Shown: positions 37,764 to 49,764 of the stretch, piece after piece
Layout: each line of letters opens with the position of its first letter
Numbering within the stretch: position 1 is the first letter of the stretch
Source of the DNA: Halarcobacter sp.
GTDB lineage: Bacteria; Campylobacterota; Campylobacteria; Campylobacterales; Arcobacteraceae
DNA length: 64,000 nt
Reading direction: 5' to 3'
Assembly: GCA_030145305.1 (NCBI GenBank)
Contig: JAQYVX010000009.1
Span: forward strand, 62,001 to 126,000
Notes under the pieces: generated by a model
Database searches by the model: none
The model's input: only the letters and a program-made list of their open reading frames with translations
What the model was told of the DNA's origin: nothing
Position numbers and translations under genes: made by a program

Positions 37764-39050
37764 TTATTTATTGAGTTTTTTTTCTTCTAATTCTGAGGCA
37801 TTTTTTATTATATCTATTCCAAATTTATCTCTTAAACCTTGAATTTTATTACTAAGTTCTCTTTTTTTCAAATCATTTTCATACTCAAAAAGATTATAAG
37901 TAAACTCTCTAGGTTTTGTAAAATTTGATACAGTTATATTTAATTGAACAATTCCATGGCTTTTATGATTATCGTTTTTTATAAAAAGTTTTTTCATATT
38001 AAATTTAAAATCCTCTTCATTAAAAATACGATTTACATTTACATAATCTTTGGATTTTATATTTGATTCATACTTAATTTTTATTGCATAAGTTAGTGGA
38101 TTAACATCAGCTTTTTTAACCAAAAAACAAAGATATCTACTTAAGATTATTACTCTTCTTTGAATCTCATTTCTATCATATATTTTGTCAAAAGTTCGCC
38201 CTATTCCTATTGATTTTTTATCTCTATGTTGTATTATTTGATTGTCATTTATTCCACAAACTCGATTATATAATTCAATACCAGGCTTTTTCCAAGAATA
38301 AAAAAGTTCTCTTTTCTTTTCTATATCACCTAAAGTTCTTATTCCATAACCTTTAAGTCTTATTTGATATGCTTTTCCAATTCCAGGGAATTCTTCAATA
38401 GGAATATCTCTTGTGAAATTTTTTATATCTTCTTTTTTTACATACTTAACCCCATCAGGTTTTGCGTACTCTGTAATTAATTTTGATAAAAACTTTGTAT
38501 TTGCAATACCAATAGAAATTGGTAAACCAAGTTCATTTGCTATTTTTTGTTTTAAATTGTATGCAAAATCCACAACTTCTGAATCTTCTATATAACCACT
38601 TAAATCTCCAAAAAATTCATCTATTGAAAACTGCTCTACTAAAGGAATTTCATGTTCTAAAAGTTTAAAAAGTTTTTGAGAAAGCTCGTGATATAAAGGA
38701 TAGTTAGGTGGAACCATTTTAAGCTTTGGACAAAGTGTTAAAGCTTCATTTACACTCATAGCAGTTCTAACCCCATAAGCTCTAGCTTCATAAGAAGAAG
38801 TTGTGATTATTCCTCTGATTTTTCCATTTTCATCTACAAAATAATCTTGAAAAGATTTTTGACCTTCATTAGTTAAAATAGTACTTACAAAAGCACCACT
38901 ATTTTCACTAATCTTTCGAACTTCTTTTTTAGTTGAGAAAATATTTAAGTTACTTCTCCCTCCAACAGCTGCAGGAATATTTTCTAAACTTTTATCAATA
39001 GTTCTGTGAGCAGATATAAAAAAACAATCAATATCAAGATGGATAAACAT
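37764..39050 (-). CDS. dinB: Y-family DNA polymerase IV
   Basis: A protein of 428 residues. The palm carboxylates are visible as HLDIDCFF (4-11) and FSIDEFFGDLSG (about 142-153). The finger segment with SYEARAYGVRTAMS follows the N-terminal motif, and a helix-hairpin-helix thumb shows FPGIGKAYQIRLKGYGIRTLGDI. It is a translesion polymerase. The start is the ATG at 39050 with AGGAG about 11 bases upstream. This 5' end is exactly where the second island is inserted, so its present leader and promoter are island DNA. A 12-codon dinB-like remnant remains at 49725-49760. Confidence 0.93.
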   Translation of the reverse strand: MFIHLDIDCFFISAHRTIDKSLENIPAAVGGRSNLNIFSTKKEVRKISENSGAFVSTILTNEGQKSFQDYFVDENGKIRGIITTSSYEARAYGVRTAMSVNEALTLCPKLKMVPPNYPLYHELSQKLFKLLEHEIPLVEQFSIDEFFGDLSGYIEDSEVVDFAYNLKQKIANELGLPISIGIANTKFLSKLITEYAKPDGVKYVKKEDIKNFTRDIPIEEFPGIGKAYQIRLKGYGIRTLGDIEKKRELFYSWKKPGIELYNRVCGINDNQIIQHRDKKSIGIGRTFDKIYDRNEIQRRVIILSRYLCFLVKKADVNPLTYAIKIKYESNIKSKDYVNVNRIFNEEDFKFNMKKLFIKNDNHKSHGIVQLNITVSNFTKPREFTYNLFEYENDLKKRELSNKIQGLRDKFGIDIIKNASELEEKKLNK

Positions 39051-39054
39051 AAAG
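39015..39054. repeat. Left attachment site (5' end of dinB)
   Basis: The first 12 codons of dinB plus the 4 bases before them match 49725-49764 in the same orientation. The core ATAAACATAAAG is identical, and the rest agrees at about 75-80%, with differences mainly at third codon positions. This marks the left island junction. Confidence 0.75.
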
Positions 39055-39100
39055 ACAAACTCCTATATAAAGGGATTTGTATAAGTATTTTAAAATAGTG

Positions 39101-39119
39101 ATACCGCACTTAGTACCGT
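39101..39119 (+). repeat. Left integrase arm-type site
   Basis: ATACCG-CACTT-AGTACCGT is 50 bases inside the left junction. The same 14 fixed bases with the same 5-base spacer length occur at 49589-49607 in the same orientation. This layout suggests binding sites for the integrase arm domain or a directionality factor. Confidence 0.55.
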
Positions 39120-40056
39120 TATAACTTTTCCCTTACACGGTATTATTATAATATATTGTAAGGGCGATATATAAGAAATATTGCATTTTGCAATATAAAA
39201 AGACATTGAGAGTCTTTGTGAGTTCTTAATACATAAGAGATATTATCGTTTTATTTGATAATTAGAGCTTAGTTAAGTATTAAAATGGGACTTTAGCTAT
39301 TGACGGGTGTTAAATACTTATCAAAAATGGGACTTTAGCTATTGGTATATCATAGGGTATTACTTTATTAATCTTCAATGCTATTAAATGCCTTTATTAT
39401 GGGCTTTATTCAAAATGGGACTTTAGCTATTGACAATATGGTCATACAAAAAGGTTAAAGAAATATAATCCCTTAATATCTTATTCCTCTCATGTATATA
39501 AAAAAGGATTTTTTTGTTAATTCTATATACTCACTTGAAAAAATTTCTTCTCTTGCAAATAAATAGTCTCTAAAGAATCTTAATAAATTAAATAGAAATA
39601 TTATATTGAAGATAACAAATGTTACTTACCTTTACAAAAAAGAACGTCAAACAATACTAAAAATATTAACCAAATTGGACCTTTATGTCAGCTAGGTAAA
39701 AAAGGCTTTACAATAACCAATTATAGGACTCTTGTAACAATTTATAAACATAAAAAAGTTAAAAAATATAAGTTTATACCCTATATAAAAAATATAATCT
39801 TCTGTAACAATACGATTATAAAAAGTAGAAAAAAGGTTATAAAAAACAAGTCTTATTAATTAATAGGTACCTAAAAAACATTGAAATAACTTTTTTTAAA
39901 CCATGAGCTTGAAAGCTTATGAAACTTAATGATTTTTATTGAGATTAACTGAATTATAAAATGAAAGTCTTAATTTTTTACTTCTAGGGTCTCTTTAAAA
40001 AAAGTCTACTTTTTTGCAAAAATAAAACAATAAAAAAAGAAATAAGGTAATAAACA
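39120..40056. other. Non-coding left end of the island
   Basis: Nearly 940 bases without a convincing gene. It holds a CCCTTAC/GTAAGGG inverted repeat (39132-39166), an ATATTGCA/TGCAATAT dyad near 39178-39197, the three direct repeats at 39282-39432, and a possible degenerate fourth copy near 39672. The rest is AT-rich. It could contain a replication or transfer origin or a regulatory region for the HTH gene. Confidence 0.5.
39282..39432 (+). repeat. Three direct repeats of a 21-bp unit
   Basis: Identical copies containing AAATGGGACTTTAGCTATTG begin at 39282, 39324 and 39412. Starts are 42 and 88 bases apart. The flanks are unique. A weaker look-alike (TTGGACC...CAGCTAGG) lies near 39676. 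The pattern fits iterons or regulator-binding sites better than a CRISPR array. Confidence 0.7.
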
Positions 40057-40308
40057 ATGAAATTCACAAATGAGAAAATTGAAATCATATATAGAGATTT
40101 AAAATCAAAGTATGACAAATCAACATTAGATATAAAAGAAGTTGCTAACGAAATTTCTTGCTCTGTATCAACTATAAACTTTTATTTAGCTCGTGGAGGA
40201 ATTGGAATACCTAAACATAAAAAAATTGGTACTTCAAAAAAGGCAAGAGTTGTTTTTAGCATTGTTGATGTTGCTGAATATTTAGCAAATACAAGTGAAA
40301 CGGCTTAA
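40057..40308 (+). CDS. Small HTH protein
   Basis: A protein of 83 residues with a helix-turn-helix at about 24-47 (DIKEVANEISCSVSTINFYLARGG) and a C-terminal helix (SIVDVAEYLANTS). It looks like an excisionase or a small MerR/AlpA-type regulator. It is preceded by AAGGTAATAAACA and followed 2 bases later by the SprT-like gene, so it is first in an operon. It could bind the repeats upstream. Confidence 0.6.
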   Translation: MKFTNEKIEIIYRDLKSKYDKSTLDIKEVANEISCSVSTINFYLARGGIGIPKHKKIGTSKKARVVFSIVDVAEYLANTSETA

Positions 40309-40310
40309 CC

Positions 40311-41168
40311 ATGATTGATGTTAATGAATATTTAGAGCAAACAAAACAAGATTGTTGTGAATTATTAAATATAAATCATGATGATGTACTTTTAACAGTT
40401 GGAGAGAGTTTAAATGGAACATTAGGAACATACAGTCCATCACATTTCTATCAAAATAAAAAAGACATAGGACTAATTGCAATAAATCCTATTTTGTTTC
40501 AAAAAGAATATCAACTTCTTTTGTTTTTTGTTATTTTGCATGAATTGGTACATCATAAGTTAAAAGAGTTCGAATGGCTTATTGATGAATTATATGACCC
40601 TCATGGAATACTTTTTAAAAAAGAGTTTGAAAATATTGGCGTTATTGTTGATGATATAGGCTATTTAATTAAATATTCTGAAAATAGTGATTTTCACAAA
40701 AGATATTTAGACTTTCTTAATTTATCAATGCCAATTACAATCAATACAGAAGAAAAAATTATCAATGAAAAAAATGTCTCAATTATAGGGCATGCAAAAT
40801 GTCCGAAATGTAAACTTAGTGTAACGACCAACCGTAATCATGAGCTTATATGTAAAAAGTGTAGTGTTGAATTGATAAACGATTACAACAAACTATTGCT
40901 TGCAGAATATAAAGAAAGAAAAGAGTTATTGAGTAAATCGGTTAAGCATTTTGAATATTTATGCTTTTATCACCCAATTAAAAAAATACAAAAAAACCAA
41001 AATATAAAGGAGGCTTTAAATGAAGTAACCAACTTAACCGTCTTTGACGCGATTTATGATGGAGATATTACAGAAAAAGGAAAAAAAGACCTTTTTATTG
41101 GTGCTAACAATGTAATTGTAGCTAGAAAAAATGTAAATAAAATCGAGGAGATTTTAAATGGAAAATAA
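40311..41168 (+). CDS. SprT-like zinc metalloprotein with zinc ribbon
   Basis: A protein of 285 residues. The metal site HELVH has His77, Glu78 and His81, with a third ligand at His98 in DPHGILFKKEFENIG. This order (HExxH then HGxxF) is that of SprT/Spartan-type proteins. A zinc ribbon follows (CPKC...CKKC, about 163-186). Spartan-type proteases remove DNA-protein crosslinks, but the role in island biology is unknown. It overlaps the next gene by 11 bases. Confidence 0.75.
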   Translation: MIDVNEYLEQTKQDCCELLNINHDDVLLTVGESLNGTLGTYSPSHFYQNKKDIGLIAINPILFQKEYQLLLFFVILHELVHHKLKEFEWLIDELYDPHGILFKKEFENIGVIVDDIGYLIKYSENSDFHKRYLDFLNLSMPITINTEEKIINEKNVSIIGHAKCPKCKLSVTTNRNHELICKKCSVELINDYNKLLLAEYKERKELLSKSVKHFEYLCFYHPIKKIQKNQNIKEALNEVTNLTVFDAIYDGDITEKGKKDLFIGANNVIVARKNVNKIEEILNGK

Positions 41169-41781
41169 AATTTTTGCAGAATTTAATGAAATGGAAACTT
41201 TGTTAATTAATGATGAGCTAACTATTCAAACAGCTTTAAAACCTAATCCAAAACTTGGAGGAGATATATTCATTTTATGGCTAGACCATAATAAATATAT
41301 TTCAAGAATACTTACTGCTTTTATGAGCGAACAAAGTGAAGATTACAAAAAAACATATCTTGACGCTTTAAGGTTTAACAATAATATTGAATTACAACTG
41401 TCAAATCCATTTTATAAGAAATTTCAAGATGGGAAAGTAAGAATATTAACAGAAACTCTTGAGACTATACAAAGTGACTTTATAAAGTGGTGCAACAACT
41501 ATTTAATTGAGCAAAATGAGAAGAAAGAATTAAAAGTTAAATTAGATAAACAAATTGGTGATGTATTCACTCAAGCTATTTCTATCTATCAAGAAGCAGA
41601 AAAAAAGATTCAAACTCTTTTATCTGATAAAACACTAATTAGACAAGCCCATAAACAAGGTTTAAGAGTTGTAGATACAGAGTTAACTGAATATAAAAAT
41701 TTTGTTAAAACTTTAAAAAGTCAAGATAATCATTTGGTGCAATATGTAAACAAGATGATTACAAAAGAGATGTTTAGATGA
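41158..41781 (+). CDS. Hypothetical helical protein of the island
   Basis: A protein of 207 residues, mostly helical, with coiled-coil-like segments (SDFIKWCNNYLIEQNEKKELKVKLDK, about 121-146) and no membrane segment or known motif. It starts inside the SprT-like gene (11-base overlap, behind GAGGAG), so it is translated with it. The partnership with the SprT-like protein is inferred from the overlap. Confidence 0.7.
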   Translation: MENKIFAEFNEMETLLINDELTIQTALKPNPKLGGDIFILWLDHNKYISRILTAFMSEQSEDYKKTYLDALRFNNNIELQLSNPFYKKFQDGKVRILTETLETIQSDFIKWCNNYLIEQNEKKELKVKLDKQIGDVFTQAISIYQEAEKKIQTLLSDKTLIRQAHKQGLRVVDTELTEYKNFVKTLKSQDNHLVQYVNKMITKEMFR

Positions 41782-41852
41782 TGGTTTAAAAGAGGTTGTA
41801 AAAACAATCTTTTTAAATCTTGGTGAACAATAAGCAAACCTCCTTATTTATA

Positions 41853-41896
41853 GGGGTACTCACAAGTAGTTTGTACTTTAGTCTTGTGAGTAACCC
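41853..41896. repeat. 14-bp inverted repeat before the recombinase gene
   Basis: GGGGTACTCACAAG pairs with CTTGTGAGTAACCC (one mismatch) around a 16-base loop, 32 bases upstream of the recombinase start. No T-run follows, so this is not a normal terminator. It may be a binding site for the recombinase, an attenuator or a crossover site. Confidence 0.6.
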
Positions 41897-41928
41897 AAAG
41901 GTATGTACAAAAAAAAGAAAGGAAACAA

Positions 41929-43011
41929 GTGAGAAATTCAAAAAAATTTGGAACAAGAGTAAGGCTTTACGACTTAAAAGACGGTGATATTTCATTTTAT
42001 ATAACTTATAAGGTCAAAGGTAAACTCAAACAACTTAAAATTGGTAAAAAAAGCGAGGGAATCAATGAATTAATATGTATAGAACATAGAAATTCCATTC
42101 TAAGCAATTTAAGACATGGTATTGACATAACAAAGAAATCATCAAATAACAATGTTCTTTTTAAAGAGTTAGCCGATAAGTACCTTGATTATGCAACAAT
42201 TCACGTAAAATCAAATAAGAAATATTTTGCACTTTATAAAAAGCATATTTTACCAATAATTGGGGATAAAATAGTATCGGATATGAACGATAATGATATA
42301 TTAAGAGTTCAAAGAATTTTAAGAAATAAGGAATTAAGTGACGCAACAAATAATCTTGTTGTAAAATTAATTAAGCGTATAGTGAGATTTGCACTTGAAA
42401 CCTCACATTTTGATTATATGCCTTTTAAAAACACTAAACTTTTTAAACTAAACAACTCAAGAGATAGATACTTAACAACACGAGAAATAAATAAACTATT
42501 TCACTATGTTACAGATGAACAAACAAAACTCTTTTTACACTTAGCCTTAACTACGGGAGCAAGAGCAAGTGCAATTTTAGAAATTAAAAAACAAGATATT
42601 GATATAGAAAATAAAACTATTTTATTAAAAGATGATAAGAGAAATTCAACTTATACGAGCTTTGTCCACGATGATGTTATGAATTTTATTAGCCCATTTT
42701 TTTATAAACTAGATACAAGAGACAACATCATTACTCAAAAGAAAAAGCCATTAAAAATAAATACATTGAGATATAGATTAAAAGAGGCTTTTGATATTTT
42801 AAATGAGGGAATTGATAACAATGATAGAAAGAATAAAGTTGTTATTCATACTCTACGTCATACTTTTGCAAGTCATCTTGCAATTAATGGTACAAGTATT
42901 CCCATTATTCAAAAACTTTTAAATCATTCAGATATTAAGCAAACTATGCGTTATGCGAAACTTTTACCCGAAAGTGGAAAGTTTGACTTAGAAACTTTAT
43001 ATCAAGGTTAA
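41929..43011 (+). CDS. Tyrosine recombinase (integrase), intact
   Basis: A protein of 360 residues starting with GTG behind GGAAACAA. An N-terminal arm-binding-like domain (about 1-65), a SAM-like core domain (75-165) and a catalytic domain are present. The residues are complete: Arg212 in GARASAILEI, His307-x-x-Arg310 in HTLRHTF, His333 in LLNHSD, and nucleophile Tyr342 in TMRYAK. It differs from the P4-type enzyme at the island end in length and N-terminus. It may mobilise an inner module or act as a helper. Its own attachment site is not evident. Confidence 0.92.
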   Translation: MRNSKKFGTRVRLYDLKDGDISFYITYKVKGKLKQLKIGKKSEGINELICIEHRNSILSNLRHGIDITKKSSNNNVLFKELADKYLDYATIHVKSNKKYFALYKKHILPIIGDKIVSDMNDNDILRVQRILRNKELSDATNNLVVKLIKRIVRFALETSHFDYMPFKNTKLFKLNNSRDRYLTTREINKLFHYVTDEQTKLFLHLALTTGARASAILEIKKQDIDIENKTILLKDDKRNSTYTSFVHDDVMNFISPFFYKLDTRDNIITQKKKPLKINTLRYRLKEAFDILNEGIDNNDRKNKVVIHTLRHTFASHLAINGTSIPIIQKLLNHSDIKQTMRYAKLLPESGKFDLETLYQG

Positions 43012-43019
43012 TAGAAACT

Positions 43020-43865
43020 ATGCACTATCAAGTTACTAAGCCATTTATTGGAATGTTAATGCAAAAAGACGACTTTAACAAAGTGATAAATCTTTTGCCG
43101 ACTCCAACTTATATCACTCATAGAACAAGTATCTATGAATCTAAAATATTAATTGTATATGAATTAAAATATCACTTAACAAGTCCTAAATCTTATAAGT
43201 GGTTTAGTGATATAAAAATCAATTTTAAAAAACATACTTTAGTTGATTTTGAGTTAATTGATAGTGAGTTTTATGTAAATGATAACACAATTTGCAATGG
43301 TGCAATATATACTCTTAATGAGCTTAGTAAAGTTTATGTAAACACAAATTTTATTAAATATCCAAGTATTTTATTTCCTCAATCACCTAAAGAACTTTAT
43401 CAAAAGTTATCTTGGTATGGTGCAAAACTCTATTATTACGAAAAACTTAATAAAGATATATTGATGAGTGTTGCTTTACAAATGAATAACGTGTTTAATA
43501 GTAATGAAAAATTACAATATAAAGAGTTATTTAAAAAAGTCATACAAGTATATGAATTTATAATAGAAAATCAAGATAATTATAAAAAGAAATTAACTCC
43601 GAATAATTTAAAGAAATCTTTGCAAAAAGGCGGACAAATAAGAGCAAATCAAAATAAAGAAAAAGCAAAAGCAAATGAAAAAAATATCAAAGAGCTTTTA
43701 AAAGACCCTAATTTTAAAAAACAAAGCGGGAAACCGAAAATAAATGAAATAGCAATAAGTTTAAATCTAAATAGAAAAACTGTTTCTAGAGTTATCTCAA
43801 AATTATCATTTGTTTTACTATATGCCTTTATTGGGTGTACTTTTAGCCAAATTACATCGATTTAA
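43020..43865 (+). CDS. Hypothetical protein with C-terminal HTH
   Basis: A protein of 281 residues lying 8 bases after the recombinase. Residues 1-200 have no family I know. A basic stretch (about 205-235, RANQNKEKAKANEKN) leads to a helix-turn-helix (INEIAISLNLNRKTVSRVISKL, about 241-262). The last 19 residues (SFVLLYAFIGCTFSQITSI) are hydrophobic and unlike the rest. They may reflect fusion to foreign sequence or loss of the natural stop just after ISKL. It is likely a DNA-binding partner of the recombinase. Confidence 0.65.
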   Translation: MHYQVTKPFIGMLMQKDDFNKVINLLPTPTYITHRTSIYESKILIVYELKYHLTSPKSYKWFSDIKINFKKHTLVDFELIDSEFYVNDNTICNGAIYTLNELSKVYVNTNFIKYPSILFPQSPKELYQKLSWYGAKLYYYEKLNKDILMSVALQMNNVFNSNEKLQYKELFKKVIQVYEFIIENQDNYKKKLTPNNLKKSLQKGGQIRANQNKEKAKANEKNIKELLKDPNFKKQSGKPKINEIAISLNLNRKTVSRVISKLSFVLLYAFIGCTFSQITSI

Positions 43866-43969
43866 AAAGAGGTGCAACAAATTTATTGATGACGTAATCT
43901 ATGACGCCTTGAGTTAGCTCGGAAGATTAAGAGAGTAAATTAAAAATTTTATTTCTCTGAAAAAATCAA

Positions 43970-44034
43970 AGGTACTTCTAGAGATTAAATCATTACGGGT
44001 ATTAGCAAGCCCGAAAAAATTCTAGAGACAAAGA
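43970..44034. repeat. Hairpin region between two island genes
   Basis: TTCTAGAGA occurs twice (near 43977 and 44022) and contains the palindrome TCTAGA, so the two copies can pair. They enclose a CGGG/CCCG hairpin (GGGTATTAGCAAGCCC). This may be a transcript structure in the 246-base gap before the HEPN-motif gene. Confidence 0.4.
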
Positions 44035-44111
44035 TTTTGAACTTGGTGAACTTTCATATGATATATAATGATAGGGTGCTATAATTATTCAAATTATATA
44101 AAAGGAATAGA

Positions 44112-44912
44112 ATGGATTTTGATACCTTTACAGAAAAAATTAAATTTGATTTTATAGGAAAAGAATTTGAGTATTTAAATACTACAATTGACACGCTTGT
44201 TAGAAATTATCAACAAGACTTTCAAGAAGAAGATGACAAATATACTCAAGCTATTAAAGAACTAAAAGAATCAGGCGAATATGATGAGCCTCTAGATGAA
44301 GAACATGCTCCCGATGTAACTTATGGTCAAATGATGGAGCACAACTTAAGTGAGCCTTTTTTTGAACTAGAAAGCTTTTCAAGTATAATCATAGAATCCT
44401 TAGTAATAAAACACTTGGCATATATTGAAGAAATTTTAATTAATATATCATTTATGATTCAAAAAAAGGAAAAAGAAATAATTCCTCCCAATTATAATGT
44501 TACAGGAGCATTTACAGATATGATTAAAGCCGTTAATTATATTAAACTTGTTACAAATGAAGAAATCAATATAAAAAGTACCGGAAATTGGAAAGTAATT
44601 ACTCATTTAAGAACTCTTAGACATCAACTAGCTCATGGAAAAAGAACTTTTGTTTTAAAAGAGGGAATTATTGACGATATTAATAGAGAATTACAATTAA
44701 TTGACAAAGGAACGATAATTTTAAAAGATTATGACTCATCAAATGGACTTGCACAGTATGGATATGAAGCTAGTCAACAGCCAAAGAATCCAAAAAATGA
44801 GTGGAATTGTTCAATTTGTTCAGACATAACCGTATTAAAAAAGTTAAATGAAATTTGTACAGATTTTATAAAAGAGGTAAAAGATATTTATAATGCTAAA
44901 TATCATACCTAA
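44112..44912 (+). CDS. HEPN-motif protein
   Basis: A protein of 266 residues, helical and acidic in the first 90. The segment THLRTLRHQLAHGKRTF contains Arg170-x4-His175, the HEPN RNase-type motif R-x4-6-H, in a helix followed by a turn. It has no membrane segment. HEPN proteins occur in toxin and antiphage systems, usually as RNA cutters. No antitoxin is adjacent on the same strand. It is convergent with the TIR-like operon, and the two share a bidirectional terminator. A link to that operon is possible but unproved. Confidence 0.6.
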   Translation: MDFDTFTEKIKFDFIGKEFEYLNTTIDTLVRNYQQDFQEEDDKYTQAIKELKESGEYDEPLDEEHAPDVTYGQMMEHNLSEPFFELESFSSIIIESLVIKHLAYIEEILINISFMIQKKEKEIIPPNYNVTGAFTDMIKAVNYIKLVTNEEINIKSTGNWKVITHLRTLRHQLAHGKRTFVLKEGIIDDINRELQLIDKGTIILKDYDSSNGLAQYGYEASQQPKNPKNEWNCSICSDITVLKKLNEICTDFIKEVKDIYNAKYHT

Positions 44913-44915
44913 TAA

Positions 44916-44945
44916 AGCGATATAGTTTAAGTATATTGCTCTTTT
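44916..44945. terminator. Bidirectional terminator between HEPN and TIR-like genes
   Basis: AGCGATATA and TATATTGCT pair (one G-T) around GTTTAAG. T-rich sequence follows on the plus strand, and A-rich sequence (T-rich on the other strand) precedes. It lies between two convergent genes. Confidence 0.65.
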
Positions 44946-44948
44946 AAT

Positions 44949-45443
44949 TTAATCTAATTTCCTATTTGTCCAATCATAGTTTCTACTACTTGGAGCTTTT
45001 TTCTTATCGCGATGGTATTCTGATGGAAAGTTATCTAATGCATACTTAATTTTTTTAGTCTCATAAGGAACTGAAACAAAATAAGCATTTTGTTTTAAAA
45101 TAGGTGGAGTATTTTTATGAGCAGTATTTGCATTATTTAAATTTACGGCAACAATAGGTATATCCATATCAATTGCAATTTCAATTTCCCATCTAACAAA
45201 CTTATAAAGAAACTTTGTTTTATCTCCAACTAAAACAATGGCTTGTTTTGAATTTCTCATTCTTTCTCTCAATTTTCTTTTTATTGTTTCCTCAGATGAA
45301 CCATCTCTTAAGTTATTTAAGTCATGTGCATTATTAAAATTAAAATCTATATTTGAATTTGCTTTAAGTGCTGTAAAAAACCTATAATGACTCATATCAT
45401 TATCTGCATCGAAAATTATATATGTTTGGTTTTTGTAACTCAT
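44949..45443 (-). CDS. Thoeris ThsB-like TIR protein (MTH538 type)
   Basis: A protein of 164 residues with a flavodoxin-like TIR fold. The pattern resembles ThsB/MTH538 TIR-like proteins: a first strand TYIIFDADND (7-16) and helix; AIVLVGDKTKFLYKFVRWEIEIAIDMDIPIVAVNL with Trp85-Glu86 as the putative active-site Glu context; and the later strand YFVSVPY. In Thoeris, ThsB senses infection and makes a signal from NAD+. It is coupled by an ATGA overlap to the channel-like gene upstream. No ThsA is present, so the channel may be the effector. It has a good ribosome site (AAGGAGAAAAACA). Confidence 0.75.
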   Translation of the reverse strand: MSYKNQTYIIFDADNDMSHYRFFTALKANSNIDFNFNNAHDLNNLRDGSSEETIKRKLRERMRNSKQAIVLVGDKTKFLYKFVRWEIEIAIDMDIPIVAVNLNNANTAHKNTPPILKQNAYFVSVPYETKKIKYALDNFPSEYHRDKKKAPSSRNYDWTNRKLD

Positions 45444-46102
45444 TGTTTTTCTCCTTGTTTATAAACTGTTGGTACAGAGTTTGTAATAATTATTGTAAAA
45501 AATAGAAAAGTATTAATCAACTGAGTTAAAAAGACAATCCTAATTTCTTGAGTCAATGGCTGAATACCACTATAAGTTAATGTAAATGCAGTTGATACAC
45601 TCAAGTAAATCGCATTAATGTAATCCAATGTACTAATATCAAATAATTCTTCATTGACTTTTAACATTTCTACATAATGAACTTGGTATAGATAAGCATA
45701 ACAAGCCAAATAATAAGCAATTGCAAGAAGATAGTTAATAAAATTTCTTTTTAATGCTTCTGCATCATTTCTTTGCGTAAATTTACTGCCCCATGAATGA
45801 TAATAAAAGTAAGTAAATAGATTACTATAAATTAAGTAAAAAATTAAGTATTTTGATATTTCGCTATTTATATTATTAACCCATAAATATATTAATAGAA
45901 ACCACTTAGAAAGAATAAAAATATCAATAGCAATTGTACTACATTTTCTTTTATAATTATTTACTTCAATTTCTGTTTGACTCGAGCACGAAATAAAGTT
46001 ACAAAGAAGTCTTGCAAATATCTTTACATATTCAACAATATTTGTGTAGTATAAAACATAGTCAATTAATATTTTGAAAAAAGGATATATAAAACTATTC
46101 AA
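45440..46102 (-). CDS. Four-helix ion-channel-like membrane protein
   Basis: A protein of 220 residues, with a TTG start behind AAAGGAAATAA. Membrane helices lie at about 53-74, 80-101, 120-143 and 188-212. Between the last two is a pore-loop-like segment, STAFTLTYSGIQPL (about 169-182). It lines up with the potassium-channel filter region T-V-G-Y-G-D-I-Y-P as T-L-T-Y-S-G-I-Q-P. Tyr, Ile and Pro are kept, but both filter glycines and the Asp are changed. I infer a cation channel of altered selectivity, acting as effector of the TIR-like protein. Confidence 0.7.
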   Translation of the reverse strand: MNSFIYPFFKILIDYVLYYTNIVEYVKIFARLLCNFISCSSQTEIEVNNYKRKCSTIAIDIFILSKWFLLIYLWVNNINSEISKYLIFYLIYSNLFTYFYYHSWGSKFTQRNDAEALKRNFINYLLAIAYYLACYAYLYQVHYVEMLKVNEELFDISTLDYINAIYLSVSTAFTLTYSGIQPLTQEIRIVFLTQLINTFLFFTIIITNSVPTVYKQGEKQ

Positions 46103-46165
46103 TTATTTCCTTTAAATTAATGTGTATAATTATTATATTTTATCAAAAAAAGTTAATTAATTTAA

Positions 46166-46396
46166 TTAATTACAAGCTCCACTTTCTTTAATAGCCTTTT
46201 TTAATTTTTCAAACTTTTGCTTTTCAATATACAAAGTTAACCATGACTCAACCCAATAAGGTATTTCTCTATCACTTGTTCCCCAATTAGTTACAGTACC
46301 CGCAGTAGTACCAAGTATTACAGAAAATTCTTTTTTTGTTAAGTCTGCTTTTTTTAACAGTTCATTAAATTTATTTTTATTCATTTTATCCGCCAA
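46166..46396 (-). CDS. Small HTH regulator (Cro/XRE-like)
   Basis: A protein of 76 residues with an HTH at about 14-40 (ADLTKKEFSVILGTTAGTVTNWGTSD) of the phage repressor/Cro type. It is upstream of, and on the same strand as, the TIR-like/channel operon (63-base gap). It is divergent from the small genes at 46515, with an operator-like inverted repeat between. It probably controls both directions. Confidence 0.75.
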   Translation of the reverse strand: MADKMNKNKFNELLKKADLTKKEFSVILGTTAGTVTNWGTSDREIPYWVESWLTLYIEKQKFEKLKKAIKESGACN

Positions 46397-46432
46397 GATA
46401 TTTATTTGATTAGGATTATATCATAATTATTA

Positions 46433-46481
46433 ATCATTTGAGTGTGTTCCTCTTGACATTATAATCAAATGATGTTACTAT
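46433..46481. promoter_or_regulatory. Divergent promoter with operator-like inverted repeat
   Basis: TTGACA (46453-46458), 17 bases, then TACTAT (46476-46481) form a good sigma70 promoter for the rightward small genes. ATCATTTGA (46433-46441) and TCAAATGAT (46465-46473) are exact inverted copies flanking the -35 box, which suits binding by the HTH regulator. A TATAAT box for the leftward gene lies near 46416-46421. Confidence 0.65.
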
Positions 46482-46514
46482 TTCACTATAAACAAACAAA
46501 TGAGGAGTATTAAA

Positions 46515-46742
46515 ATGAATAAAAAAATTATTGGTGCAAATAAAATCGTACATATTGAAGATAATATTAAAGGAGTAATGGTTTTACTTGATGGTTTAGC
46601 TCATGCGGAAGAAACAGGAGCACACCCATTTCAAAAAGACGCATATTACACATTACATTATGCACTTGAAAAAGCTTTAAAAGATTTATCAACAATAAAA
46701 GATTCTGTTAGTTATATGCAAAACACACTACAAAAAAACTAA
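46515..46742 (+). CDS. Small hypothetical protein
   Basis: The start is taken as the ATG at 46515 (MNKKIIGANK), because the alternative ATG at 46500 overlaps the ribosome site GAGGAG. It has 75 residues and a helical C-terminal half (TLHYALEKALKDLSTIKDSV). No known family. It is first in a run of three small genes under the strong divergent promoter. Confidence 0.65.
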   Translation: MNKKIIGANKIVHIEDNIKGVMVLLDGLAHAEETGAHPFQKDAYYTLHYALEKALKDLSTIKDSVSYMQNTLQKN

Positions 46743-46763
46743 AAAACATAAAAGGGGTATAAT

Positions 46764-47030
46764 ATGAAAAAAGAAATTAAAGGTTTTACAAATGAACAAG
46801 AAAAAGAAATCAATGAAGTAAGTGAATTGCATTATGATAACATTTCTCAAGGTCTTGCTATTCTTAAAATGTACAAAGAATACTTAAAAGGAAGTGACGA
46901 CAAAACGCAAGAACTATTTAGTATTGAAATGGAAAAAGTTTTAGAGGTTGCAATTGAAAAAATTGAGCCTACAAGTTGCTTATTGTGTGAAACAAGTGTT
47001 AATAGTGACTATTTAATAAACCCATGTTAA
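46764..47030 (+). CDS. Small hypothetical protein
   Basis: A protein of 88 residues, acidic and mostly helical (EQEKEINEVSELHYDNISQGLAILKMYKEYLKG). A C-terminal CLLC and a terminal Cys might bind metal. It lies 21 bases after the previous gene and is followed by the ribbon-helix-helix gene. I recognise no family. Confidence 0.65.
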   Translation: MKKEIKGFTNEQEKEINEVSELHYDNISQGLAILKMYKEYLKGSDDKTQELFSIEMEKVLEVAIEKIEPTSCLLCETSVNSDYLINPC

Positions 47031-47065
47031 ATAACCTCTTTTATAAAATTTAATGGAGTATTTTA

Positions 47066-47272
47066 ATGGAAATCAATTCTTTATGTTGGAGAGATGACAA
47101 AAGAGGTCGTCCAATAGTGAAAGATAAAAAAATCAATGTACCAAGAGTCGTTGTTAAAGAAAGTATTCTAGTTGAGATTGAAAAACTAGCTATTGAATTA
47201 AATATTTCAAGAAGTGAAGTTTTTCAACGGGCACTTGAGGCTTTTATAATTATTCAAAGAGGTAATCAATAA
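47066..47272 (+). CDS. Ribbon-helix-helix DNA-binding protein
   Basis: A protein of 68 residues. The pattern of a beta strand (PRVVVKESILVEIEKLAIELNISRSEVFQRALEAFI, about 28-63) is that of the ribbon-helix-helix class of small repressors and plasmid/phage regulators. It is last in the small-gene run. No toxin gene is adjacent, so an antitoxin role is not supported. Confidence 0.7.
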   Translation: MEINSLCWRDDKRGRPIVKDKKINVPRVVVKESILVEIEKLAIELNISRSEVFQRALEAFIIIQRGNQ

Positions 47273-47397
47273 TTTAGATTTAATATAAAGCCCTATAAGG
47301 TCATTTTAGTGTATTGTAGTCCATCTTAACAGTAAAAAGACCGTATAGAGCAAATATAAGAGTAAAATATTTAAAGTATTCTCATTTTAAATAAATA

Positions 47398-47426
47398 TTG
47401 ACATGAAAAACTATTTTAGATATAAT
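47398..47426 (+). promoter_or_regulatory. Consensus sigma70 promoter of an orphan RNA
   Basis: TTGACA (47398-47403), an exact 17-base spacer, and TATAAT (47421-47426). Both boxes and the spacing are perfect, which is rare in this AT-rich window. The expected start is near 47433. Confidence 0.8.
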
Positions 47427-47432
47427 CCCCGC

Positions 47433-47662
47433 CATAAAATTAATGTTACAAAATAATAATTAGTTAGATTAATTCAAAAAATACTTAATTAAAATTAAGT
47501 TTATTTAAGAATTATGTGTTAGAATGAATGTATACAAAAGGTAATTGCGAAACGATTAAGGAGTTATAAGATGAATTTAAGAGGATTTACAGATAGATAA
47601 ACTATCTAAATAATAAAGACTAAAAAGGGGAGTGAGTTTAAAAACTTACTCCCCTTTTTTTT
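47433..47662 (+). ncRNA. Candidate short RNA with two mini-ORFs
   Basis: A transcript of about 230 bases is bounded by a consensus promoter and a strong terminator, with no full-size gene. It contains two tiny frames: 47528-47569 (13 codons, MYTKGNCETIKEL) and, one base later, 47571-47600 (9 codons, MNLRGFTDR) behind AAGGAG at a 7-base spacing. A small hairpin AGATAG/CTATCT follows. It could be a regulatory RNA, a leader-peptide relic or an mRNA for mini-proteins. Confidence 0.6.
47623..47662 (+). terminator. Strong Rho-independent terminator
   Basis: AAAAGGGGAGTGAGTTT and AAACTTACTCCCCTTTT pair over about 17 bases (one G-T) with a tiny loop, followed by TTTT. It ends the orphan RNA just before the convergent membrane-protein gene. 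Confidence 0.9.
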
Positions 47663-47663
47663 A

Positions 47664-48353
47664 CTAGTCTCTAGTTGTACCATTTTTCTTTTTTTCTGTC
47701 CATCTATCGACTAACCATTCAAAATTTACTGCAAAGTCTGGACTTTCTGTATCTCTTATGTGCTTTATATAATTTGAAAAAGACGTATAAGAGTCGATTG
47801 CCATTGCGTCCATACCGTCCTTAATTATCTGCTCATCAAAAGCACTATTTAAAATCCCAATTGCAAGATATTCATAATCATTTATTATTGCTCTTATATG
47901 GTTTTTGATTTTTTTACCATTTTCAGTGAGCTCATATTGTCCTGATTCACCTATATAATTATTATTTACAGTTTTACAAATCCATTCATGTATATCTTGA
48001 TAAGGTATAGAGTGACCTTTTTGCATTTCTTGAGAATAATCCATTTCAGTAAACTCCTCAAGCTTCTGTCTTTTTTCCCTTAACTCTTTTAATATTCTTA
48101 TTGACTCTGTCATTGATAACTGCCGTCTTGATAAATCAGTATTTGAAACTATCTGCTTATAAGCTATTAAAAGACCTATACTCATAATTGCAGTAACATA
48201 AATTACATATTTATCTTTTGCAACAATAGCTACATCACAATATGTTTTATATACTACATATCCCACAAAAAGCAATGCACCATAAACTAGACAGCGAACT
48301 ACACATTTTAAAAATTTATTAAACCAAAAGCCAAATTGTCTTTTTTTATCCAT
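47664..48353 (-). CDS. DUF4760-like membrane protein
   Basis: A protein of 229 residues. Two membrane helices (about 18-36 and 48-68) are followed by a cytoplasmic domain. The features (long helix with RRQLSMTESIRILKELREKRQKL near 76-98, then IRAIINDYEYLAIGILNSAFDEQIIKDGM) fit DUF4760-type proteins. The function is unknown. It is the last cargo gene before the integrase remnant. Confidence 0.65.
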   Translation of the reverse strand: MDKKRQFGFWFNKFLKCVVRCLVYGALLFVGYVVYKTYCDVAIVAKDKYVIYVTAIMSIGLLIAYKQIVSNTDLSRRQLSMTESIRILKELREKRQKLEEFTEMDYSQEMQKGHSIPYQDIHEWICKTVNNNYIGESGQYELTENGKKIKNHIRAIINDYEYLAIGILNSAFDEQIIKDGMDAMAIDSYTSFSNYIKHIRDTESPDFAVNFEWLVDRWTEKKKNGTTRD

Positions 48354-48440
48354 ACATACCCTTTAATTTGGTGAATTATATCTAAATTATTTATAAAAAT
48401 AAGTAACTTAATGATTATTTTAATTCTACTAATTATTAAT

Positions 48441-49563
48441 TTAAAGTCCGTCGATATAATCTGCGTACCATTGTATCAAGCCTCTTTTTTGATTGATATA
48501 TTTATTTAAAGTCTCTCTATTATACGCACTTCTTACCTTATTTCTGTCCGCGTGAGATAAACAAGCCTCGATTATAAATCCACTATAACCGTGATTCTCC
48601 TCATTTTCATAAGCTGTTGTTGAAAATGTACTCCTAAACCCATGCAAAGTCATTTGACCATCAAAACCAAGCTCAAGTTTTAAATAACGGCTTGTCGTTG
48701 CCCTACTCAAGTGTTTATTTGGATTATTATGAGCGGAGTGAAATATATATTTACTTTTAATCTTTGACTCCTCAAGGCACTCGTTTAAATCAAGTAGTAA
48801 ATCAAAGACTTGTTGCGGTATTGGATAAAGATAATCTTTTCTCGTCTTTGTATTCTCTGCGGGTATTAACCAAGTACGATTTTCAAAGTCAATATGCTTC
48901 CATTCTGATTTTAAAAGACTAGATATTCTTACAAACATATAAGGCAATATTTTAAGAGAATAAACCGCCGAATAATGATAATACTCTTTATCGTCCAATT
49001 TGAGACCGTGTATCTTTTTTATAAGCTCTTTGATGTCGTCCGTTTCTGTAAGTGCCTTATGATTTGTAATTTGCTCTCTCGGAAATAAATCCGTCACTTG
49101 AAAATCGACGGGATTATGCTTTAAATTGTAATTAACGACCGCAAAAGAGAAAATCCTTGATAAGTACCGATAAATCCTTTTAAGAGTGCTTGAGTGCTTT
49201 TTAAGCCTATTTAATAGATTTACAATATCAATTCGTTTTATACTGTTTATTTCAACCGCTCCAAGATGAGAATAAACATTTTTTTGGAGTGTTCCTCTAT
49301 AATTATAAGCCGTTGTCTCGTCAAGACGATGAGAGATTGAGTCAAGCCATTTTTCACCAACAAACTCAAGAGTCAAAAACTCTTGCTCTTTTTCAACCTT
49401 TTTTTGGTTTATTGGATTGATATTATTTTGTATTTGATTTCTTGCCTCATTTCGTTTATCTCTTGCCTCTTTAAGTGAGACCGTCGGATAATTTAAAATC
49501 TTTATCTTTTGGCTTTGCCTTTTTGATTTCTGTATCTGTAAGACCTTTTACAACTCTTGCCAT
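48441..49563 (-). pseudogene. P4-type integrase, broken by an internal deletion
   Basis: The frame begins at the ATG at 49563 with the DUF4102 arm domain (MARVVKGLTDTEIKKAKPKD...FKLSDG) and stops after 29 residues. The next frame continues with YPTVSLKEARDKRNEAR and the whole core and catalytic domains to 48441. Catalytic residues are visible there: Arg in FVRISSLLKSEW, HGFR, and LSHADRNKVRSAYNR. About 35-40 residues of the arm domain are missing. The junction base string TATCCGACGGT fits both flanks, so a microhomology deletion is likely. A TTG-started fragment of 311 residues (49376 down) may still be made but lacks the arm domain. Confidence 0.85.
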
Positions 49564-49588
49564 ATTATACCCCTAAAATATGTAGTTA

Positions 49589-49607
49589 ATACCGTTAATA
49601 GTACCGT
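49589..49607 (+). repeat. Right integrase arm-type site
   Basis: ATACCG-TTAAT-AGTACCGT lies 26 bases upstream of the integrase start and about 120 bases inside the right junction. It matches the left copy at 39101-39119 in all 14 non-spacer bases and in orientation. Confidence 0.55.
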
Positions 49608-49724
49608 GATTAATTCGCGTTTTCCTGATTTTTTATGATACACAATGAGTCTTTAAAAGTTCATTAAAGACCATAATTTAGAGTCTTATTGATATTTTGT
49701 GATTTTCTTAGATTTTTAATGATT

Positions 49725-49764
49725 TTATAAAAAATAATCTAAATCTAGGTGAATAAACATAAAG
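49725..49764. repeat. Right attachment site with dinB remnant
   Basis: On the minus strand, an ATG at 49760 begins MFIHLDLDYFL and a stop, compared with MFIHLDIDCFF at the start of dinB. The match includes ATAAACATAAAG exactly. It is the right copy of the island target. The remnant is a nonfunctional 11-codon frame. Confidence 0.75.

What the first reader, a model, noticed from the sequence alone, without database searches (positions are those of the whole stretch)
47398..47662. Perfect orphan promoter driving a 230-base RNA with two mini-ORFs
TTGACA-N17-TATAAT is followed by a strong terminator 200 bases on, and no normal gene lies between. Two tiny frames (13 and 9 codons) are arranged with one base between them, the second with AAGGAG at an ideal distance. 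Such a unit in an island between a regulator gene and a membrane-protein gene could be a toxin-peptide mRNA, an anti-defence or silencing RNA, or a counter-transcript control element.
Basis: partly seen in the sequence, partly recalled or inferred. Interest (0 to 1): 0.6.

Follow-up and report, generated by a model that had tools for sequence, protein, structure and literature searches.

The report
Orphan short transcript in integrative element
A real-looking strong promoter inside a partly decayed mobile DNA element of a Campylobacterales bacterium appears to drive a short RNA with no recognisable gene and no known relative; it is most likely an orphaned gene leader or a private regulatory RNA rather than a toxin peptide.

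Summary
The letters are as described: TTGACA-N17-TATAAT at 47398-47426, tiny frames of 13 and 9 codons one base apart, AAGGAG 7 bases before the second, and a strong hairpin terminator at 47622-47659. The promoter is probably real. This genome has 24 perfect TTGACA-N16-18-TATAAT sites against 4 in a control. Of the other 23, 14 precede protein frames, 4 precede tRNAs, 4 are identical copies near contig ends (rRNA-like, inferred), and one is inside a gene. Ours alone has nothing recognisable downstream. The rest is weaker. The terminator is bidirectional and sits 4 bases past the stop of the convergent DUF4760 gene. The RNA without the terminator folds no better than shuffles (z -0.26). The 13-codon frame has no ribosome site; both peptides are hydrophilic. 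No relative of the RNA or the 9-aa peptide was found in about 400 genomes each, nor of the tested stretches in phage, plasmid or viral sets. The unit lies in a 10.7-kb integrative element inserted at the start of dinB, whose neighbouring integrase lost part of its N-terminal domain. Best reading: a short transcript, probably the orphaned promoter, leader and start codon of a lost cargo gene; an element-specific sRNA is the close rival. A type I toxin is not supported.

The parts
47398..47426 (+). sigma-70-type promoter TTGACA-N17-TATAAT with C-rich discriminator CCCCGCC (47427-47433)
   Evidence: genome-wide comparison
47433..47662 (+). predicted short RNA, about 230 nt (transcription start inferred 6-8 nt after the -10 box)
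   Evidence: sequence; fold z -4.48 with the terminator, -0.26 without it
47528..47569 (+). 13-codon frame MYTKGNCETIKEL, no ribosome-binding site; probably not translated
   Evidence: tandem arrangement in 9% of shuffles
47558..47563 (+). AAGGAG ribosome-binding site, 7 nt before ATG 47571
47571..47600 (+). 9-codon frame MNLRGFTDR
   Evidence: unique among 397 genomes of the class, absent from viral contigs
47622..47659 (.). bidirectional intrinsic terminator shared with the convergent DUF4760 gene
   Evidence: I2; minus-strand reading; similar hairpins beside pckA in this genome and in G008
47290..47351 (.). imperfect inverted repeat, 23-nt arms with 4 mismatches, 16-nt loop, between the RHH gene and the promoter; possible operator or structured 3' end
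   Evidence: z -3.96 for 47273-47400; one of three such repeats in the window and the most GC-rich
47066..47272 (+). ribbon-helix-helix regulator, last gene of the small operon 46500-47272
   Evidence: Pfam RHH_1 E 0.00066, just under the curated cut-off
47664..48353 (-). DUF4760 protein with a hydrophobic N-terminus, convergent to the RNA
   Evidence: Pfam PF15956 E 1.9e-20
48441..49563 (-). tyrosine integrase, broken: part of the N-terminal arm-binding domain is missing with a frame break near 49480
39043..49764 (.). integrative element inserted at the 5' end of dinB; 12-bp exact core ATAAACATAAAG at 39043 and 49753
   Evidence: relatives run from dinB straight into sequence matching window 49729 onward

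Best explanation
It is a genuine short sigma-70 transcription unit of a strain-specific, partly decayed integrative element. RNA polymerase starts near 47433 and stops at the bidirectional terminator about 230 nt on (inferred, no expression data). The only credible translation start, at 47571, gives a 9-residue hydrophilic peptide. The arrangement (strong promoter, unstructured AT-rich leader, AAGGAG, ATG, almost immediate stop, then the convergent neighbour's terminator) is best read as the orphaned expression leader of a cargo gene whose body was lost, still transcribed but without a selected peptide product. Shown by sequence: the promoter, the second ribosome site and start, the shared terminator, the element boundaries, the broken integrase nearby. 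Inferred: the transcription, the former gene and its loss.
For: Perfect promoters are enriched in this genome (24 against 4). Of the other 23, 14 precede a protein frame, 4 precede tRNAs, 4 are identical rRNA-like copies near contig ends, 1 is inside a gene; ours is the only intergenic one without a recognisable product. The AAGGAG-ATG pair is unlikely by chance (0.3% of shuffles), and the motif AAGGAGTTATAA(A/G)ATG heads ordinary genes elsewhere (L100, L106). No RNA structure besides the terminator (z -0.26). No conserved peptide or RNA in 397-399 genomes. The unit sits in a mobile element absent from the same site in sister genomes, and its integrase has already suffered a coding deletion.
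Against: No remnant of a former gene body is detectable: only about 20 nt lie between the mini-ORF stop and the terminator, and the 25-residue frame around ATG 47571 had no hit in Pfam or phages. The promoter is intact and has a C-rich discriminator like the tRNA, rRNA-like and S10-like promoters here, which could mean a selected RNA product. Without homologues, decay and selection cannot be told apart.
Confidence: 0.42

Rival explanations
1. An element-encoded regulatory small RNA (possibly also translating the 9-aa peptide) that acts by base pairing, for example on the element's own genes, with transcription perhaps controlled by the adjacent RHH protein through the 47290-47351 inverted repeat.
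For: Perfect-consensus promoter with a C-rich discriminator resembling stable-RNA promoters here and a strong terminator; no gene downstream; GC-rich inverted repeat just upstream next to an RHH regulator.
Against: No structure besides the terminator; no Rfam family; no notable pairing with 23 gene starts (best z about -2, not remarkable among 23 tests); no antisense match beyond AT-rich chance; no homologue.
Confidence: 0.33
2. A control or insulation unit for the convergent DUF4760 gene: transcription from 47398 meets DUF4760 transcription at the shared terminator, and read-through makes antisense RNA to DUF4760.
For: Convergent genes share one bidirectional terminator 4 bases past the DUF4760 stop.
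Against: A strong terminator should limit read-through; convergent units sharing such terminators are ordinary here (a similar hairpin lies between pckA and its convergent neighbour).
Confidence: 0.1
3. A toxin-peptide mRNA of a type I toxin-antitoxin kind.
For: Short ORF with a good ribosome site on a short, strongly promoted RNA in a mobile element near a defence gene.
Against: Peptides are 9 and 13 residues and hydrophilic; no antisense promoter in 47433-47662; no conservation.
Confidence: 0.04
4. No transcript: a chance consensus promoter next to the DUF4760 terminator.
For: 14 of 100 shuffles of the window hold at least one perfect site, and the terminator is explained by DUF4760.
Against: Genome-wide, perfect sites are six-fold over the control and nearly all head genes or stable RNAs; an exact ribosome site and ATG lie downstream.
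Confidence: 0.11

Closest known systems
Orphaned leader or vestigial gene start in a decaying integrative element
   Same: Promoter, leader, ribosome site and ATG with almost no coding sequence, in an element with a broken integrase
   Different: No detectable remnant of the former gene
Intergenic sRNA with Rho-independent terminator
   Same: Own promoter, about 230 nt, terminator hairpin, no long ORF
   Different: No second structure, no family, no target found; terminator shared with a convergent gene
Type I toxin mRNA such as AapA of Helicobacter pylori (PMC8108984 found; family traits from own knowledge)
   Same: Short ORF on a short RNA in the same bacterial order
   Different: No hydrophobic peptide, no antisense antitoxin promoter
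Leader-peptide attenuator
   Same: Short ORF with a good ribosome site before a terminator
   Different: No downstream gene on the same strand to control

Membership tests
Type I toxin-antitoxin | short hydrophobic membrane peptide | tested here: not met
   mean hydropathy -0.67 and -0.96
Type I toxin-antitoxin | antisense or adjacent antitoxin RNA with its own promoter | tested here: not met
   no minus-strand promoter with 9 or more of 12 in 47400-47760; unusual promoters are not covered
Leader-peptide attenuator | regulated gene downstream on the same strand | tested here: not met
   the next gene is convergent DUF4760
Known sRNA family (Rfam 15) | match at gathering score | tested here: not met
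   GibS, the highest-scoring, has 27 bits against gathering 115
Intergenic trans-acting sRNA | own promoter and intrinsic terminator | tested here: met
Intergenic trans-acting sRNA | base-pairs with target mRNAs | tested here: inconclusive
   23 gene starts of the window tested by duplex energy, none notable; whole transcriptome not tested
Intergenic trans-acting sRNA | RNA is made | not testable with these tools
   needs RNA-seq or Northern blot
Vestigial gene leader | recognisable remnant of, or intact relative with, a full gene at this start | tested here: inconclusive
   no hit for the 25-residue frame, but no related element was found in which the site could be compared
Integrative element | occupied and empty sites with duplicated core, and an integrase | tested here: met
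   the integrase is broken

The most novel reading that the evidence does not exclude
An element-specific RNA, made from a stable-RNA-like promoter and controlled by the neighbouring ribbon-helix-helix protein through the 62-bp imperfect inverted repeat, that regulates the element or its defence cargo and also encodes a 9-residue peptide.
Probability: 0.1. Interest if true: 0.5.

Novelty: new member of a known kind. Interest (0 to 1): 0.22.

Why it matters
If transcribed, it is the only perfect-consensus promoter in this genome (outside a gene body) with no recognisable product, a good case for asking whether orphan transcripts in integrative elements are relics or regulators. As it stands the finding is modest: one genome, no homologue, no structure.

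Tried and rejected
DNA homology to own genome, genus (16) and order (399): only terminator hairpins, AT-rich chance matches and generic AAGGAG-ATG gene starts (an arginase-like 322-aa frame and others). Flanking proteins as bait for related islands: the 88-aa protein and DUF4760 occur only in the own genome of 104 in the family; the RHH protein has one weak relative in the genus with unrelated surroundings; viral contigs gave nothing; the integrase gave only distant relatives. DNA search of 46400-47700 against phages and plasmids: none; plasmids by protein gave only one distant DUF4760. HTH-like reading of the frame NECIQKVIAKRLRSYKMNLRGFTDR: no Pfam match and no phage match. Rfam relaxed search: chance-level matches driven by the terminator. 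Upstream inverted repeat: no copies in the window or family beyond AT-rich chance. RNA-RNA pairing: no signal.

Full report
Observation. A perfect promoter is expected 0.15 times per shuffled window, and 14 of 100 shuffles have at least one. The exact ribosome site with an ORF of at least 8 codons is found in 0.3% of shuffles; the tandem pair of tiny frames in 9%. The first frame has no ribosome site of its own.

Is the promoter real? The genome holds 24 perfect TTGACA-N16-18-TATAAT sites against 4 for the reversed pattern. Reading the DNA downstream of each: 14 lead within 230 bases to a protein frame of at least 50 residues, 4 lead to tRNA genes, 4 are identical copies near contig ends (probably rRNA operons; this is inferred), and 1 lies inside a 424-codon frame. 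The remaining one is the site of the finding, with no frame of 50 codons within 600 bases. So a perfect site in this genome is nearly always placed like a working promoter. The bases after the -10 box are C-rich (CCCCGCC), as at several tRNA, rRNA-like and S10-like promoters (TCCGTCC, TCCCGTCC, CCGCGTCC). In C. jejuni sigma-70 promoters lack a -35 sequence, and those of H. pylori are very similar (PMC3847290), so the consensus -35 is notable for the order, but the enrichment shows that this genome uses it. That the genome belongs to Campylobacterales is inferred from the kin found by the searches and from the proteins; no name was given.

The terminator is not independent evidence. Its minus-strand reading is also a terminator (GGGGAGT...ACTCCCC then TTTTT), 4 bases after the stop codon of the convergent DUF4760 gene. 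Closely similar hairpins lie between pckA and a convergent gene elsewhere in this genome and in a sister species, so this is a house style of the genus.

Structure. The full 230-nt RNA folds better than shuffles (z -4.48), but without the terminator it does not (z -0.26). No Rfam family matches at its gathering score in this region. Just upstream, between the RHH gene and the promoter, lies a 23-nt imperfect inverted repeat (47290-47312 / 47329-47351, 4 mismatches; z -3.96 for the stretch), one of only three such repeats in 64 kb and the most GC-rich. It may be an operator for the RHH protein or a structured end of the operon; no related copy was found.

Context. Sister genomes run directly from dinB (window 37764-39050) into sequence matching window 49729 onward, and a 12-bp core ATAAACATAAAG is exact at 39043 and 49753. 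Thus 39043-49764 is an integrative element of about 10.7 kb inserted at the 5' end of dinB. It carries an excisionase-like HTH gene, two tyrosine integrases, a Thoeris ThsB-type TIR protein, small regulators, and DUF4760. The integrase next to the finding has lost part of its N-terminal domain, with a frame break, so the element is decaying.

Relatives. None of the unit: not in 399 genomes of the order by DNA (hits were gene starts or AT-rich chance), not the 9-aa peptide in 397 genomes of the class or in viral contigs. A 20-base core was absent from viral contigs. The surrounding 46400-47700 had no DNA match in phage or plasmid records. The 88-residue protein and DUF4760 occur in none of the other 103 family genomes at the thresholds used. 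Covariation and codon-level tests are therefore impossible at present.

Mechanism. The evidence supports a real promoter and a short transcript whose only plausible product by translation is a 9-residue hydrophilic peptide. I judge an orphaned gene leader most likely (0.42): a cargo gene lost behind its start codon, with the convergent gene's terminator now closing the unit. A private sRNA is close behind (0.33). The stable-RNA-like discriminator favours the sRNA; the lack of structure, targets and conservation, together with the decay of the element, favours the relic. A type I toxin is unlikely because the peptides are hydrophilic and no antisense promoter was found. An attenuator lacks a gene to control.

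Noticed in passing
window 39043-49764: A 10.7-kb integrative element inserted exactly at the start of dinB (DNA polymerase IV), with empty sites in sister genomes.
   Followed up: partly
window 48441-49563 (-): Integrase with part of the arm-binding domain deleted and a frame break; the element may be immobile unless the second integrase (41929-43011) serves it.
   Followed up: yes
window 44949-46102 (-): Thoeris ThsB-type TIR protein adjacent to a predicted membrane protein without any family match; no ThsA match among the ten element proteins scanned; possibly a variant defence pair.
   Followed up: no
window 39276-39432: Three direct repeats of AATGGGACTTTAGCTATTG near the left end of the element, absent elsewhere in the window; possible integrase or excisionase arm sites.
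   Followed up: no
window 47290-47351: Imperfect inverted repeat with evenly spaced mismatches between the RHH gene and the orphan promoter.
   Followed up: partly
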